Of a stretch of DNA of 64,000 nucleotides, positions 11,479 through 30,846 are shown one piece after another. The stretch is from positions 558,001 through 622,000 of the forward strand of contig NC_088937.1 in assembly GCF_033473495.1 (NCBI RefSeq), in the 5' to 3' direction. Made by a program: the position numbers and the translations under genes. How positions within the stretch are numbered: the first letter of the stretch is position 1; the number at the start of each line of letters is the position of its first letter. The notes under the pieces were generated by a model. The model was not told the origin of the DNA. It ran no database searches and worked only from the letters and a program-made list of their open reading frames with translations. Source of the DNA: Cercospora beticola. Taxonomy: Eukaryota > Ascomycota > Dothideomycetes > Mycosphaerellales > Mycosphaerellaceae.

Positions 11479-11902
11479 TTAAGCATCATCGACGATGCGA
11501 AGCGCCTATTCGGGTGTTAGTTGACGCGTGGCACGGTACGCAACGACACGGACACACCTTCTCGTTGCCGTAAGCTTGTGCAGCTTCGGCTTCGGCACCA
11601 GCATCTCTTTGATCGACGATCCGAAGAGCCTTCTCGTTGCCGTATGCTTGTGCGGCTTCAGCACCAGCGTCTCTCTGATCAACGATTCGGAGAGCCTTCT
11701 CATTGCCGTATGCTTGGGCAGCTTTTGCACCCGCATCTCTCGCGGCGGGGACTCGGAGAGCCTTCTCATTGCCATAGGCCTGTGCAGCCGATTCCGCAGC
11801 GATCAAATTGGTTGGACGGCTATATGCCTGAGGAGCCACAGGTGCTGCTGCCACCGACAGAACCATCGCGGCCAGACCCGCGGTCAAGTATAGGAATTGC
11901 AT
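11479..11902 (-). CDS. Secreted multi-repeat peptide precursor (candidate RiPP precursor), 2 exons
   Basis: Exons 11558-11902 and 11479-11505 give 123 residues. Residues 1-20 are a clear signal peptide ending AAA. The rest is four near-identical copies of AQAYGNEKALR, starting at residues 40, 62, 84 and 108, joined by spacers VPAARDAGAK, IVDQRDAGAE and IVDQRDAGAEAE. A degenerate PQAYSRP at 24-30 may be a fifth copy. Spacers are X-Ala dipeptides (DA, GA, KA, EA), suited to stepwise dipeptidyl trimming, behind a single Arg. No Lys-Arg Kex2 site is present. The 52-nt intron (branch CTAAC, end ATAG) splits the fourth copy; after splicing it finishes as ALRIVDDA and stops. Signal peptide plus repeated short peptides is the architecture of UstA-type and other repeat precursors, and a UstYa gene lies opposite. 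A repetitive cell-wall protein or pheromone-like peptide remains possible. Confidence 0.75.
11558..11785 (-). repeat. Coding tandem repeat of about 66 bp, four copies
   Basis: The repeated unit encodes AQAYGNEKALR plus a spacer. Unit spacing is 66, 66 and 72 bases, so the last spacer is longer by exactly two codons. The final copy continues after the intron at 11505. Confidence 0.9.
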
Positions 11903-12583
11903 GGTTGCTGGGGGTAAGAAGATTGTTGAGAGGATGTTGGTGAGCGGCTCGATAGAGTCTGGACGCCAGGTCCTTTTACTTGTACCTCCAGCGTCATGTG
12001 CTTTTTGCGCTTGTACGAGGCATCTCAAGTGGCTGATGCAAGGGCCTTGGGCTGCATAGTGAGCCTCGGGAGGCGGCATGAGATCGACACAGCTCGACAC
12101 AGTCGAAGCTCCTCCTCTGCGTCTGGAGCCTTCGACCTGTCCGTGGCGGACACACCTCCCATGCTTATCGACGACTGGCGATCGCTTTGGAACACGCCAA
12201 CCGCTGAAACATGGCCTACTGGCAATGCCGCACAATACTATCGTGGCAGCTGCTGTTTCAACATCACATCTCGAGGCGGTACTCTGGTATAGTCGCATCC
12301 GCATAAAAGGTGGACGCGTGCAGTGCCAGTGGTGCCAAGTAACCTAGCCGTAGCCTTGGTATTCAGCTCGTCTGCGAGTGGCTGGCTGCAGCCTCTAAGC
12401 TTGTGCAGAAACGGCAGGTGAAGTGCTATTAAGCGAACGTGCATGAATATGCATAACTCAAATCAACCAAGAGACGCCGTTGACGAGACAGACACGATCG
12501 CCCTACCACATGGCTTCGCAGACACTCAAGAGAAATCCGACAAGCAGTGCGACCTTTTGTAAAGTGATCGTTGGACAGAGCTA
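11903..12583. promoter_or_regulatory. Divergent promoter of the repeat precursor and the UstYa gene
   Basis: 681 bases separate the two divergent start codons. No other gene is convincing here; overlapping frames have no family resemblance. A shared regulatory region would allow co-expression of precursor and tailoring enzyme. That is inference: no specific motif was recognised. Confidence 0.55.
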
Positions 12584-13851
12584 ATGGAAGCATCGCAATC
12601 ACATCCCATGCAGACGGCAAACAGTCGACGCGGCTCTTCGGATGACCTTGATGCACCAAGCTCCAGCAGCGAAGCGCGGTTACTCGACGGAGTAGCCTGG
12701 GAGAAGGCTGCGACTTCACCTCAGCACTCTCCCTCGCCTACCTTCTGCCGCCGCCACTGCATAACGATTCTGAACTTCTGCCTATTCATCATATCATGCA
12801 CACTTTTCACACTATCATTCTCCACCCCAGAGCGCAGCAATAATTGGCTACTGCAAAAGACTTCTTTCTACTGTAAGACAATCCACTGGGTTCAGAGGGA
12901 CACCATTGCTGAGACGCTCTTCCAACAGCTCCCATCTTCTCCCGCTACGACATAGACTTCCAACAAAAGACTGTTGTCGGACCACTTTTCAACGAAGACA
13001 GCCTTTCAGCCGAAGAGGCACTCCTCCGCGCTTACCCATCCCCCGAGACCGAAGCTCTATGGGATGAGTACGAAGAAATAGGAACTCTGATCATCTCCTC
13101 CGATGATGTCCGACTACTTGGGAAAGACCCTAGCACGACCGTGAAAGCACCCGTGGATTTCGGTTCGTACTCTCCCGTTCATGTACTGCTTGATTCTACA
13201 GACATCCTAACGCAATCTTTTGTATCTATAGGCTACGGCCCAGACGCCCATCTCGCCATGCTCGACGGCCAACACGCCATCCACTGCCTTAACACTCTCC
13301 GTCGATACGCTTATCGAGAATACTTCTACCCGAACCTCACAGCCTCGACCACTCCTGGCAAAAGTCCTTTCTCGCCATTGGCTGAAGCACATCTTAGTCA
13401 TTGTCTACATATTTTATTGCAGACGCTGACTTGTAAACCTTCGTTTGATTTGATTACTATGAATGTAAGTTCAGTACCCTTCGCATGTTTGCTTTACTGT
13501 GGTCGCTGACACTTCATATCAGTGGGTCGAAACACAAATCAACCCTTACCCAGACTTTGCGATCAATAAGAAGTGCATCGATTACAAGCAGATGAAGAAT
13601 TGGCAAACGAAGAATAAGTTGTCAAAAGAGCAGTGGTTGGAAGTGGGGGATCGAGGGCCGCAGAAGGAGGACAAGGTGAGTGCCGCGAGCTCAACCAGCT
13701 CAGCTTTGAGATGTGTTGGAACTCCTTTCGGATCAATGTACTAATGCGATAAAAGGTCTTCCCTATGGCCCCGAAATTGGCTGAATGGGTGGCTTCGACA
13801 GACGCAGAGACTGGAGACAAGAAGACGGAGCAGGTGGACCATCATGATTGA
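12584..13851 (+). CDS. UstYa-family (DUF3328) oxidase, 5 exons
   Basis: Exons 12584-12872, 12929-13162, 13232-13464, 13523-13675 and 13756-13851 give 334 residues, all junctions in phase. A cytosolic Ser-rich N-terminus is followed by one membrane helix at about 60-79 (ITILNFCLFIISCTLFTLSF). The UstYa signature follows: SPIFSRYDIDF, then two HxxHC motifs, HAIHC at 189-193 within DGQHAIHCLNTLRR and HLSHC at 228-232, then Cys242. Known family members are copper-dependent oxidases that cyclise or oxidise ribosomal peptides (ustiloxin, asperipin and related dikaritins), and a minority act in other pathways. Its divergent neighbour encodes a secreted repeat precursor, the expected substrate type. 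No tyrosinase-type oxidase, S41 peptidase or methyltransferase occurs nearby. Confidence 0.92.
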
Positions 13852-28912: not shown

Positions 28913-30846
28913 TCAAGCATGTCCAGGAAGTGCTCTTCGAATTGCGCGACCGTCTGCTCTCCTGTAGTGCATGCTCAATGTATCCGGGTCAAGCTCACCG
29001 CTCGTGTCATCATCATCAGCTGCCGACAAGGATGAGCCAGCGACCAAGCTGTAGTCACTTGCACTGGCTCCGGGCCGGGCGCCCTGTCGAAGTGGCTGGT
29101 CTTGGTATTTTTCGCTGAAGACGTGTCCATAGCTGCGCTTGTGCGTGGTGTCCACCGGTGTTTGTGTGGCACTGAAGTAGGAGTGCGAGGGAGCAGCGGA
29201 GCTGGGCGACGAGGCCTCCAACTTGTTACTCGCCAGCATATTGGAAGACGTCTGAAGAGGCGGCAAGTCGAACGCTCGCCCGGAGATGGGCGTCCCAGAC
29301 GCGCTCGAGCGGCTTTGAGGTTGCATGGGCTGAGGTTGAAGTGGCCTGCTGTTGTTGTACATGTCCATCGAGGACGAATGTGAGTGACCGGACTGCTGTG
29401 CCTGCAATGAAGGTGGCTGTTGGTAAGTTTGGTGTTGCGAGGACATCTGCGGTGGGTACGTCGAATGCTGCGGTTGCTGCGCGAGAGTAGCTTGAGGCTG
29501 TGGCGGCGGAGGCAAGGCCGGCTGCTGCACAGAGTATCGACGGGTATCAGATTGTGCATGCGCGGAGTAATCAATGCTACCGCGGTGTTGCTGCTGAACG
29601 GCAGTATCGTAGGATGCCTGTGGCGGAGCACTCATTTGCGGCGGTGCTGGTGCATAACCATAGTAGCCTGGTTGTGATGCACTGACCGGTGAAGGTGCAG
29701 GAGGAGCTGCGTAGCCTTGCTGGTATTGGGGCGGTGGAGGCTGCATTGGAGGGGCCTGTTGCACGTACGGGCCTTGTTGGTAAGTCTGGGTTGGTGAGGG
29801 TCCATACTGTGCAGGTTGATTGAAGGCGGGCTGTGGAGGTTGTGGAGCATTGCCGTATTGGGTGGCTTGGTACGCACTAGCCATATCCTGAGCAGATGGT
29901 CTACGTGAAATGGGCTGCCCAAGGGATTGGTGACTGGTGTTACTGGTCGACCGAGGACGAGGGATTGGGTCCATATAGCTATGCGGAGTATGCATCATGC
30001 CTGGATATGGCTGCGACTGCGACTCGGGCGTGCTGGACATGCGCGCACGAGCGGCGGCAGTCTCGTCCTCGTACTCATCCCAATCTTTGGCACTGTTCTT
30101 CTGGTCGCGGCGGCGCATGCGCACATCTCTCCTGATACGCACGCGACAGCCCTGCTCTGCGACCATCCGGCTCAGAGCAGTGCTTTCCGTCAGGCCTGGG
30201 AACTTCTTCGCACTGAAGACCTGGAATGGCTCGGACTTCACTTCGAGGCGATGATTCACTACTGGAGCTCCCTCGCCGGCAGCCTTCGGGTCCTCGGACA
30301 TTTTGTCCTCGTCCTTGACATTCTTGAGTTCCTCGTACAGGCTGAAGCTCAAGCGGTAGTTTCCCTCGTGACGAACAGATAAGTCTGGGAAAATAAAGTA
30401 GCCAGCCGGGTCCGGTCGGTCCAGGTAGACCATTCCTGCCACAGGCGTGCCTGTGAGAACCGGTGGGGTGTGGCGGTCGGCAGAAACACGTCCATGTGCA
30501 ATTGGGCGGGCGGCCTCCAGGGTGGCGAACAGGAAATAATTGGCATGCATTGTGAAGGTAATGTCATCGGCGCGCTCGCGGCCAGAGCCTTCATAGATCC
30601 TCAACTCAACAATCGGGGGTGGATCCACAGGTCTTCGGTCGGCAGAGGCTAGATGTATTGTCAGTGTTGCGCATTGGATGGTGGATGTGACGCGTGCTCA
30701 CATTTGGCGCCTTGTCCACATGCTCTGGCACGGACTGGCTGTTGTAGCACTGTCATCTCGTATGTGAGGACTCTGCCTTCGGCCGTGGTCCGGGAAATGG
30801 AGCTTTTGGTCTCATTGTCGACTGGGATGATGGTCGGACGCTCCAT
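28913..30846 (-). CDS. veA: Velvet regulator VeA, 2 exons
   Basis: Exons 30702-30846 and 28913-30648 give 626 residues. In fungi VeA moves into the nucleus in the dark, pairs with VelB, binds the methyltransferase LaeA and couples sexual development to secondary metabolism. The intron (53 nt) lies at a position I expect in veA genes, joining VLQQPVRARACGQGAK to SSADRRPVDPPPIVELRIYE. The velvet domain covers about 20-230 and includes YFIFPDLSVRHEGNYRLSFS and a basic segment (RIRRDVRMRRRDQK). The middle is Gln/Pro/Tyr-rich and disordered. The C-terminus carries HKRSYGHVF and DQPLRQGARPG, a block I associate with VeA orthologues. Nothing is missing. Almost 4 kb of gene-poor DNA lies upstream. 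Confidence 0.96.

What the first reader, a model, noticed from the sequence alone, without database searches (positions are those of the whole stretch)
11479..13851. Minimal fungal RiPP locus: repeat precursor divergent from a UstYa oxidase
A secreted 123-residue protein made of four AQAYGNEKALR repeats lies head to head with a UstYa/DUF3328 gene carrying both HxxHC motifs. In known dikaritin pathways a repeat precursor and UstYa enzymes are the core pair. Here the repeat sequence does not match any core peptide I know, the flanking genes are housekeeping, and no other tailoring genes are near. This may be a new, very compact ribosomal peptide system with a Tyr-containing core.
Basis: partly seen in the sequence, partly recalled or inferred. 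Interest (0 to 1): 0.88.

Follow-up and report, generated by a model that had tools for sequence, protein, structure and literature searches.

The report
Fungal peptide precursor beside UstYa oxidase
A leaf-spot fungus carries a small secreted repeat protein, probably cut into short peptides, back to back with an enzyme gene of a type known to modify such peptides; the cut sites look different from those that published searches for such precursors look for.

Summary
The window is Cercospora beticola. On the minus strand, 11479-11902 encodes a 123-aa protein with a signal-peptide-like start and four AQAYGNEKALR units, split by one 52-bp intron. It lies head to head, 681 bp apart, with a complete five-exon UstYa gene with two HxxHC motifs (12584-13851). 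Three relatives of the precursor were found (C. zeina and two short contigs). Between the four C. beticola units, AQAYGNEKALR shows only synonymous differences, so the peptide is under selection. First, the precursor has no dibasic Kex2 site, which published dikaritin and KEP definitions require; instead units carry conserved [KR]xLR and Arg sites and even-length runs of X-Ala dipeptides ending at AQAYGNE, an alpha-factor/Ste13-like signature. Second, in the same genome three dibasic repeat precursors also lie divergently beside UstYa domains. Best reading: an alpha-factor-like polyprotein cut after single arginines and trimmed by a Ste13-type dipeptidase, with UstYa probably oxidising the Tyr peptide. 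Oxidation, co-expression and product are unproven; linkage in other species could not be tested. New variant of a known kind.

The parts
11479..11902 (-). Precursor gene, 123 aa secreted repeat protein; exon 1 11902-11558, intron 11557-11506 (52 bp), exon 2 11505-11479 incl. stop
   Evidence: splice supported by P0001 and P0002
11843..11902 (-). Signal-peptide-like start (residues 1-20, ending AAA before PVAPQAY)
   Evidence: crude heuristic only, no SignalP run; similar in P0001, P0002 and P0046
11720..11785 (-). Repeat unit 1 AQAYGNEKALRVPAARDAGAKA (residues 40-61)
11654..11719 (-). Repeat unit 2 AQAYGNEKALRIVDQRDAGAEA (residues 62-83)
11582..11653 (-). Repeat unit 3 AQAYGNEKALRIVDQRDAGAEAEA (residues 84-107), one extra EA dipeptide
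11479..11581 (-). Repeat unit 4 AQAYGNEK|ALRIVDDA, split by the intron, then stop
11903..12583 (.). 681-bp divergent intergenic region; one CCG-N3-CGG element at 12141 (no significance tested)
12584..13851 (+). UstYa (PF11807) gene, 334 aa; introns 12873-12928, 13163-13231, 13465-13522, 13676-13755
   Evidence: identical to P0003 CB0940_02437
12740..12820 (+). Long N-terminal helix of UstYa (residues 53-79), read as a membrane anchor with the catalytic domain after it
   Evidence: AlphaFold2 model, mean pLDDT 82.9; membrane role and topology inferred
13273..13287 (+). First HxxHC motif (HAIHC, H189/H192/C193)
13390..13404 (+). Second HxxHC motif (HLSHC, H228/H231/C232)

Best explanation
The minus-strand gene encodes a secreted polyprotein that is cut into several copies of one short Tyr peptide. 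Shown: signal-peptide-like start, four units, selection on AQAYGNEKALR, conserved basic sites, X-Ala spacers. Inferred: in the Golgi a basic-site protease (kexin acting on single Arg, or a yapsin-like enzyme) cuts after the conserved [KR]xLR and after the Arg before DAGAEA; a Ste13-type dipeptidyl aminopeptidase then removes DA-GA-EA(-EA) and stops at AQAYGNE because AQ is not an X-Ala/X-Pro dipeptide; a carboxypeptidase trims the C-terminal Arg. The divergently transcribed UstYa enzyme, a predicted single-pass membrane protein facing the same lumen, then oxidises the peptide, most likely at Tyr. The product would be a small secreted modified peptide (signal, toxin or effector: not known).
For: Selection: 18 synonymous and 0 nonsynonymous differences in AQAYGNE between units, 12 and 0 in KALR. 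Conservation over four sequences: 17 of 18 AQAY units go on as GNE (the other as SRP, in P0046); of these 17, 15 read on as [KR]-[AF]-L-R and 2 (the last of P0002 and of P0046) break off at GNEK, where the intron lies. Spacers: 13 of 13 are 6 or 8 residues long, alanine at 38 of 40 second positions, and the only length change is one EA dipeptide. The genome has one kexin-type P-domain match and five DPPIV_N matches, two over the whole domain. In the same genome, three dibasic repeat precursors lie divergently beside UstYa domains among 14 UstYa regions read; one has DA, EP or NA between KR and its Tyr core in 15 of 16 units. At the published Ascomycota mean of 5.25 KEPs per strain (PMC7329392, abstract) 0.02 would be expected there. 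UstYa looks competent: H189, C193, H228, H231, C232 invariant and H192 at least 90% conserved in a 43-row alignment. PMC9769878 (passages) reports products that appear to be cut after single arginines from fungal repeat precursors.
Against: No dibasic site at all; in the rows seen of the yeast Kex2 matrix of PMC2515848 (Q among them; A and L not seen) non-basic P2 residues score zero. Two of 40 spacer alanines are Thr in P0046 (DAGAET, DTGASA), which would stop Ste13 trimming. No tailoring gene of known dikaritin clusters was identified among 28 nearby ORFs scanned, and the nearest tyrosinase on this contig is over 3 Mb away. 48 UstYa loci make chance adjacency possible: roughly 0.8% for a given gene if the genome has about 12,300 genes (gene number recalled). 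No expression, peptide or oxidation data. Pairing in a second genome not tested.
Confidence: 0.5

Rival explanations
1. An unmodified linear peptide precursor (pheromone-like or signalling), processed as above; UstYa is an unrelated neighbour.
For: Alpha-factor-like X-Ala spacers; many UstYa genes in the genome; 41 of 42 UstYa homologues are only 24-53% identical and come from many ascomycete genera, while precursor relatives were found in three sequences only. PMC7329392 (abstract, passages) finds pheromone-type KEPs almost never accompanied by DUF3328 genes.
Against: The divergent pairing matches three repeat-precursor/UstYa pairs in the same genome. The core does not match either published dothideomycete alpha-pheromone type (PMC6339444, section read).
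Confidence: 0.27
2. An intact secreted or wall-bound alanine-rich repeat protein, not cut into peptides.
For: No dibasic sites; two spacer positions in P0046 break the dipeptide rule.
Against: Spacer length is always even, with changes concentrated at the X positions; the residue after GNE is K (15) or R (2) in 17 of 17 units; the AQAYGNEKALR block is far more constrained than the following linker (pN 0.00 against 0.41).
Confidence: 0.15
3. A degenerate dikaritin precursor that lost its dibasic sites and is no longer processed; a decaying locus.
For: Dibasic precursors with a similar layout exist in the genome.
Against: Open frame, conserved splice site, purifying selection between units, conservation in C. 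zeina; UstYa intact.
Confidence: 0.08

Closest known systems
Dikaritins (ustiloxin, phomopsin, asperipin-2a, victorin pathways)
   Same: Secreted precursor with repeated Tyr-containing units beside a UstYa/DUF3328 gene with two HxxHC motifs; asperipin-2a also uses a single UstYa (PMC7329392, PMC12048977, passages)
   Different: No KR/RR/KK/RK between units; repeat unlike the cores named in the papers read; no tyrosinase, methyltransferase or peptidase of such clusters identified nearby; product unknown
KEX2-processed repeat proteins (KEPs) of Le Marquer 2019 and Umemura 2020
   Same: Signal peptide, at least three near-identical tandem units, Ste13-like X-Ala signature as discussed in PMC6339444
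   Different: Both surveys require dibasic sites between repeats, so this precursor would not pass their stated rules; their lists (supplements) were not available
Ascomycete alpha-pheromone precursors (S. cerevisiae MF-alpha type)
   Same: Basic cut site followed by X-Ala dipeptides and then the peptide
   Different: Monobasic sites; core lacks both dothideomycete pheromone motifs (two Cys, or PYGxPxG) described in PMC6339444
C. beticola repeat precursor at G000:C7:42394-43358 (QFYPVYG units)
   Same: Same genome, UstYa domain divergent beside it, KR-DA-Q start, Tyr core, first units ending NEK
   Different: 16 units with KR sites; different core; no sequence comparison between the two was run

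Membership tests
Dikaritin RiPP | UstYa/DUF3328 class-defining enzyme with two HxxHC motifs at the locus | tested here: met
   PF11807 152.5 bits; motifs conserved in 43-row alignment
Dikaritin RiPP | Precursor with N-terminal signal peptide and repeated core units | tested here: met
   (signal peptide by a crude heuristic only)
Dikaritin RiPP | Core units separated by dibasic Kex2 sites (KR, RR, KK) | tested here: not met
   0 dibasic sites after the signal peptide in C. beticola, C. zeina and P0002; two RR in P0046 lie in the tail that I read as intron
Dikaritin RiPP | Core residue used for oxidative cyclisation (usually Tyr) | tested here: inconclusive
   Tyr present in every unit; no chemistry available
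Dikaritin RiPP | Further tailoring genes (tyrosinase, methyltransferase, peptidase, transporter); not required by later definitions (PMC12048977, passages) | tested here: not met
   Not found among 28 ORFs scanned: 21 of the 56 stop-to-stop window ORFs of 170 aa or more and 7 ORFs of the 20 kb upstream; small exons and unscanned ORFs could hide one. 25 tyrosinase hits in the genome, none within 3 Mb on this contig. An M24 metallopeptidase-like ORF lies 44 kb away and a SLAC1-type channel about 16 kb away; neither is a dikaritin gene known to me
Dikaritin RiPP | Modified cyclic peptide product | not testable with these tools
   needs mass spectrometry
KEP (Le Marquer/Umemura) | At least three repeats between KR/RR/KK(/RK) sites | tested here: not met
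Alpha-pheromone precursor | Ste13 X-Ala/X-Pro dipeptides after the basic cut site | tested here: met
   38 of 40 alanines, 13 of 13 even lengths; cutting itself not shown
Alpha-pheromone precursor | Known dothideomycete pheromone core (two Cys, or PYGxPxG) | tested here: not met
   AQAYGNE has neither

The most novel reading that the evidence does not exclude
A two-gene fungal RiPP system whose precursor is released without any dibasic Kex2 site, by cutting at single arginines ([KR]xLR and R-DAGAEA) followed by Ste13-type dipeptide trimming, and then oxidised by one dedicated UstYa. Such precursors would be missed by KEP screens that require dibasic sites, so a hidden set may exist beside the many UstYa genes without a known partner.
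Probability: 0.33. Interest if true: 0.68.

Novelty: new variant of a known kind. Interest (0 to 1): 0.52.

Why it matters
Fungal genomes hold dozens of UstYa genes, here 48 merged loci, most without an assigned substrate (recalled). If precursors can lack dibasic sites, searches with the rules of PMC6339444 and PMC7329392 miss them, and a search for UstYa-adjacent secreted repeats with X-Ala spacers could find more. It would also link pheromone-type trimming with UstYa chemistry and give a small, easily tested two-gene system in a sugar-beet pathogen.

Tried and rejected
Alpha pheromone: the core has no two-Cys or PYGxPxG motif; a degenerate WC..PGQ.C pattern gave two isolated, non-repeated matches elsewhere in the genome, so the true alpha-pheromone gene was not located and its cut sites could not serve as a control. 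Cys-rich C-terminus of the unspliced ORF: an intron artefact. Pfam Ion_trans_N on the precursor: below its cut-off, ignored. Foldseek of the UstYa model against PDB: 0 matches at E <= 0.001, best 0.35, and no sequence match in PDB, so no active-site template. Paper searches: AYGNEK gave 0 papers; Cercospora + UstYa + RiPP (2 papers), Cercospora + ustiloxin (8), C. zeina + ribosomally synthesized (1) and broader searches listed no paper whose title or abstract start concerns this locus; of the papers I read passages of PMC9453070 only. Supplements could not be read. A shared promoter element: one CCG-N3-CGG, significance not tested. The repeat scans also flagged ORFs that I dropped by eye: a minisatellite-like ORF in L041, RRRALT repeats in L036, a Cys-rich ORF in L045, overlapping and antisense frames in L039, and low-complexity or beta-propeller-like ORFs in L049 and L055. 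A random-region control was drawn up but not fetched.

Full report
Identity of the window. The window is therefore taken as C. beticola, C3:558001-622000.

Observation. Both genes are real. The precursor (minus strand, 11902-11479) has one 52-bp intron with a CTAAC branch point; splicing gives 123 aa and a complete fourth unit, AQAYGNEKALRIVDDA. The unspliced ORF ends in a Cys-rich tail that is only intron read-through. The splice is supported by C. zeina P0001, ending GNEK-ALRVVDNA, and by P0002, whose reading breaks off at GNEKVS. The UstYa gene has five exons and 334 codons, PF11807 at 152.5 bits. The AlphaFold2 model built on 43 sequences has mean pLDDT 82.9, one long N-terminal helix (53-79) that I read as a membrane anchor, and both HxxHC motifs in helices. 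Nothing in PDB resembles it at E <= 0.001. No identical precursor protein came back from the protein collection although the UstYa neighbour did, so the C. beticola precursor seems not to be annotated there in this form.

Selection. Comparing the four units codon by codon (six pairs), AQAYGNE has 18 synonymous and 0 nonsynonymous differences, KALR 12 and 0, the following five residues 10.5 and 28.5 (this includes the end of the last unit), and the first five spacer residues 7 and 2 (three units). The units have diverged at silent sites while AQAYGNEKALR has been held constant. Pairs of units are not independent, so these counts are not separate events.

Relatives. Two searches of the protein collection gave three relatives in all: P0001 (C. 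zeina, 88% identity), P0002 (ENA contig of 723 bp, 87%) and P0046 (3,113-bp contig, 63%); both searches scored only the about 8,000 candidates sharing most words. The numbers of GNE units (own precursor first) are 4, 5, at least 3 and 5. Of 18 AQAY units, 17 go on as GNE; P0046 also repeats the leader-like AQAYSRPTNLIAAES once.

Processing signature. After the signal peptide there is no KR, RR, KK or RK in C. beticola, C. zeina or P0002; the two RR of P0046 lie in a tail that I read as intron (the intron reading is inference, no DNA of it was seen). Published KEP surveys require KR, RR or KK (PMC6339444, pipeline section) or KR, KK, RK or RR (PMC7329392, methods section), and PMC9769878 describes dikaritin units as separated by KR, RR or KK (passages). 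What is conserved instead: [KR]-[AF]-L-R after GNE in 15 of 17 units, the other two breaking off at GNEK where the intron lies; and an Arg followed by a spacer of 6 or 8 residues in 13 of 13 cases, with Ala at 38 of 40 second positions and the one length change being an EA dipeptide. This fits Ste13-type removal of X-Ala dipeptides (rule as stated in PMC6339444), stopping at A-Q. The two exceptions, both Thr in P0046, count against it. The first unit of each protein is preceded by AAES and not by such a spacer. PMC9769878 reports products that appear to be cut after single arginines in heterologously expressed KEPs, and PMC2515848 reports recognition of acidic P1' residues by Kex2 (abstract passage), which fits R|D; the same paper's matrix gives no credit to non-basic P2 in the rows seen, which does not fit. 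The genome has one P-domain (kexin-type) match and five DPPIV_N matches, two over the whole domain.

Is the UstYa neighbour meaningful? The genome has 63 UstYa domain hits, 48 loci after merging at 700 bp, so adjacency alone is weak. I read 14 ten-kilobase regions holding 21 of these loci; the other 27 were not read at that width, part of them only within 1.5 kb of the hit (30 short loci, of which the scan flagged three: this locus and two that are the same as L044 and L046 below). Three regions other than this one carry dibasic repeat precursors: L039 (QFYPVYG, 16 units, KR), L044 (DVAKPDYQYLV, five units, KK/RK) and L046 (EVPYEVGLTYADYG, KR). Only L044 passed the strict signal-peptide filter; for L039 and L046 the signal-like start lies in another frame upstream and was assigned by eye. 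In all three a UstYa domain lies divergently upstream of the precursor: L039 precursor start 43358(-) and domain 45089(+); L044 90631(-) and 91494(+); L046 620731(+) and 619165(-), the last also with a second UstYa downstream. Full gene models and possible genes in between were not worked out. At 5.25 KEPs per strain (PMC7329392 abstract, Ascomycota) 0.02 would be expected in 14 regions, P(>=3) 1.3e-6; my filter is not their definition, so this is an order of magnitude. The control held here is small: the rest of the window, L049 and L050 gave no secreted repeat ORF under the signal-peptide filter, which also missed two of the three precursors above. In PMC7329392, 22% of KEPs have a DUF3328 gene within 15 genes, with the count highest at the next gene (passages).

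In L039, 15 of 16 units have two residues (DA 12, EP 2, NA 1) between KR and QFYPVYG, an X-Ala/X-Pro dipeptide. So a dibasic UstYa-linked precursor of this same fungus also shows the Ste13 signature, and the present precursor looks like the same logic with the dibasic step replaced. That replacement is my inference.

Neighbours. Pfam on 8 other ORFs between 666 and 19225, 13 further window ORFs and 7 ORFs of the 20 kb upstream of the window shows an amine oxidase and a Zn2Cys6 regulator 7-11 kb from the pair, an RRM protein, a weak 2EXR match, a dual-specificity phosphatase, a velvet factor, SPT23/MGA2, biotin-dependent carboxylase parts, an EDC4-like protein, a GH85 enzyme, an M24 peptidase-like ORF, a weak GDPD match, and upstream a Utp8-like protein, an AAA ATPase, a SLAC1 channel, a CCDC90-like protein and a fatty acid hydroxylase; 9 of these 28 had no family. 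No tyrosinase or methyltransferase was found, and none of 25 tyrosinase hits in the genome lies within 3 Mb on this contig.

Verdict. A peptide precursor is likely (about 0.8 that it is processed in some way); dedicated modification by this UstYa is about even. The pair works like a dikaritin system but fails one published defining feature, so I do not file it as a dikaritin. Co-occurrence across species remains untested.

Noticed in passing
L039 (G000:C7:42394-43358, minus): Dibasic repeat precursor with 16 QFYPVYG units separated by KR and DA/NA/EP dipeptides, divergent from a UstYa domain; looks like a classic UstYa-linked RiPP precursor.
   Followed up: partly
L044 (G000:C9:90329-90631, minus): Short secreted precursor with five DVAKPDYQYLV units and KK/RK sites, divergent from a UstYa domain.
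   Followed up: partly
L046 (G000:C9:620731-621481, plus): Repeat precursor with EVPYEVGLTYADYG units and KR sites, between two UstYa domains.
   Followed up: partly
L041 (G000:C8:1137500-1147400): Four UstYa loci within about 5 kb; no convincing repeat precursor seen in the region.
   Followed up: no
P0046: Relative in which the leader-like QAYSRPTNLIAAES segment is itself duplicated between units; its last unit breaks off where the intron lies in C. beticola.
   Followed up: no
window 28913-30697, minus: Velvet-factor gene, a regulator family of secondary metabolism and development (role recalled), 15 kb from the pair.
   Followed up: no
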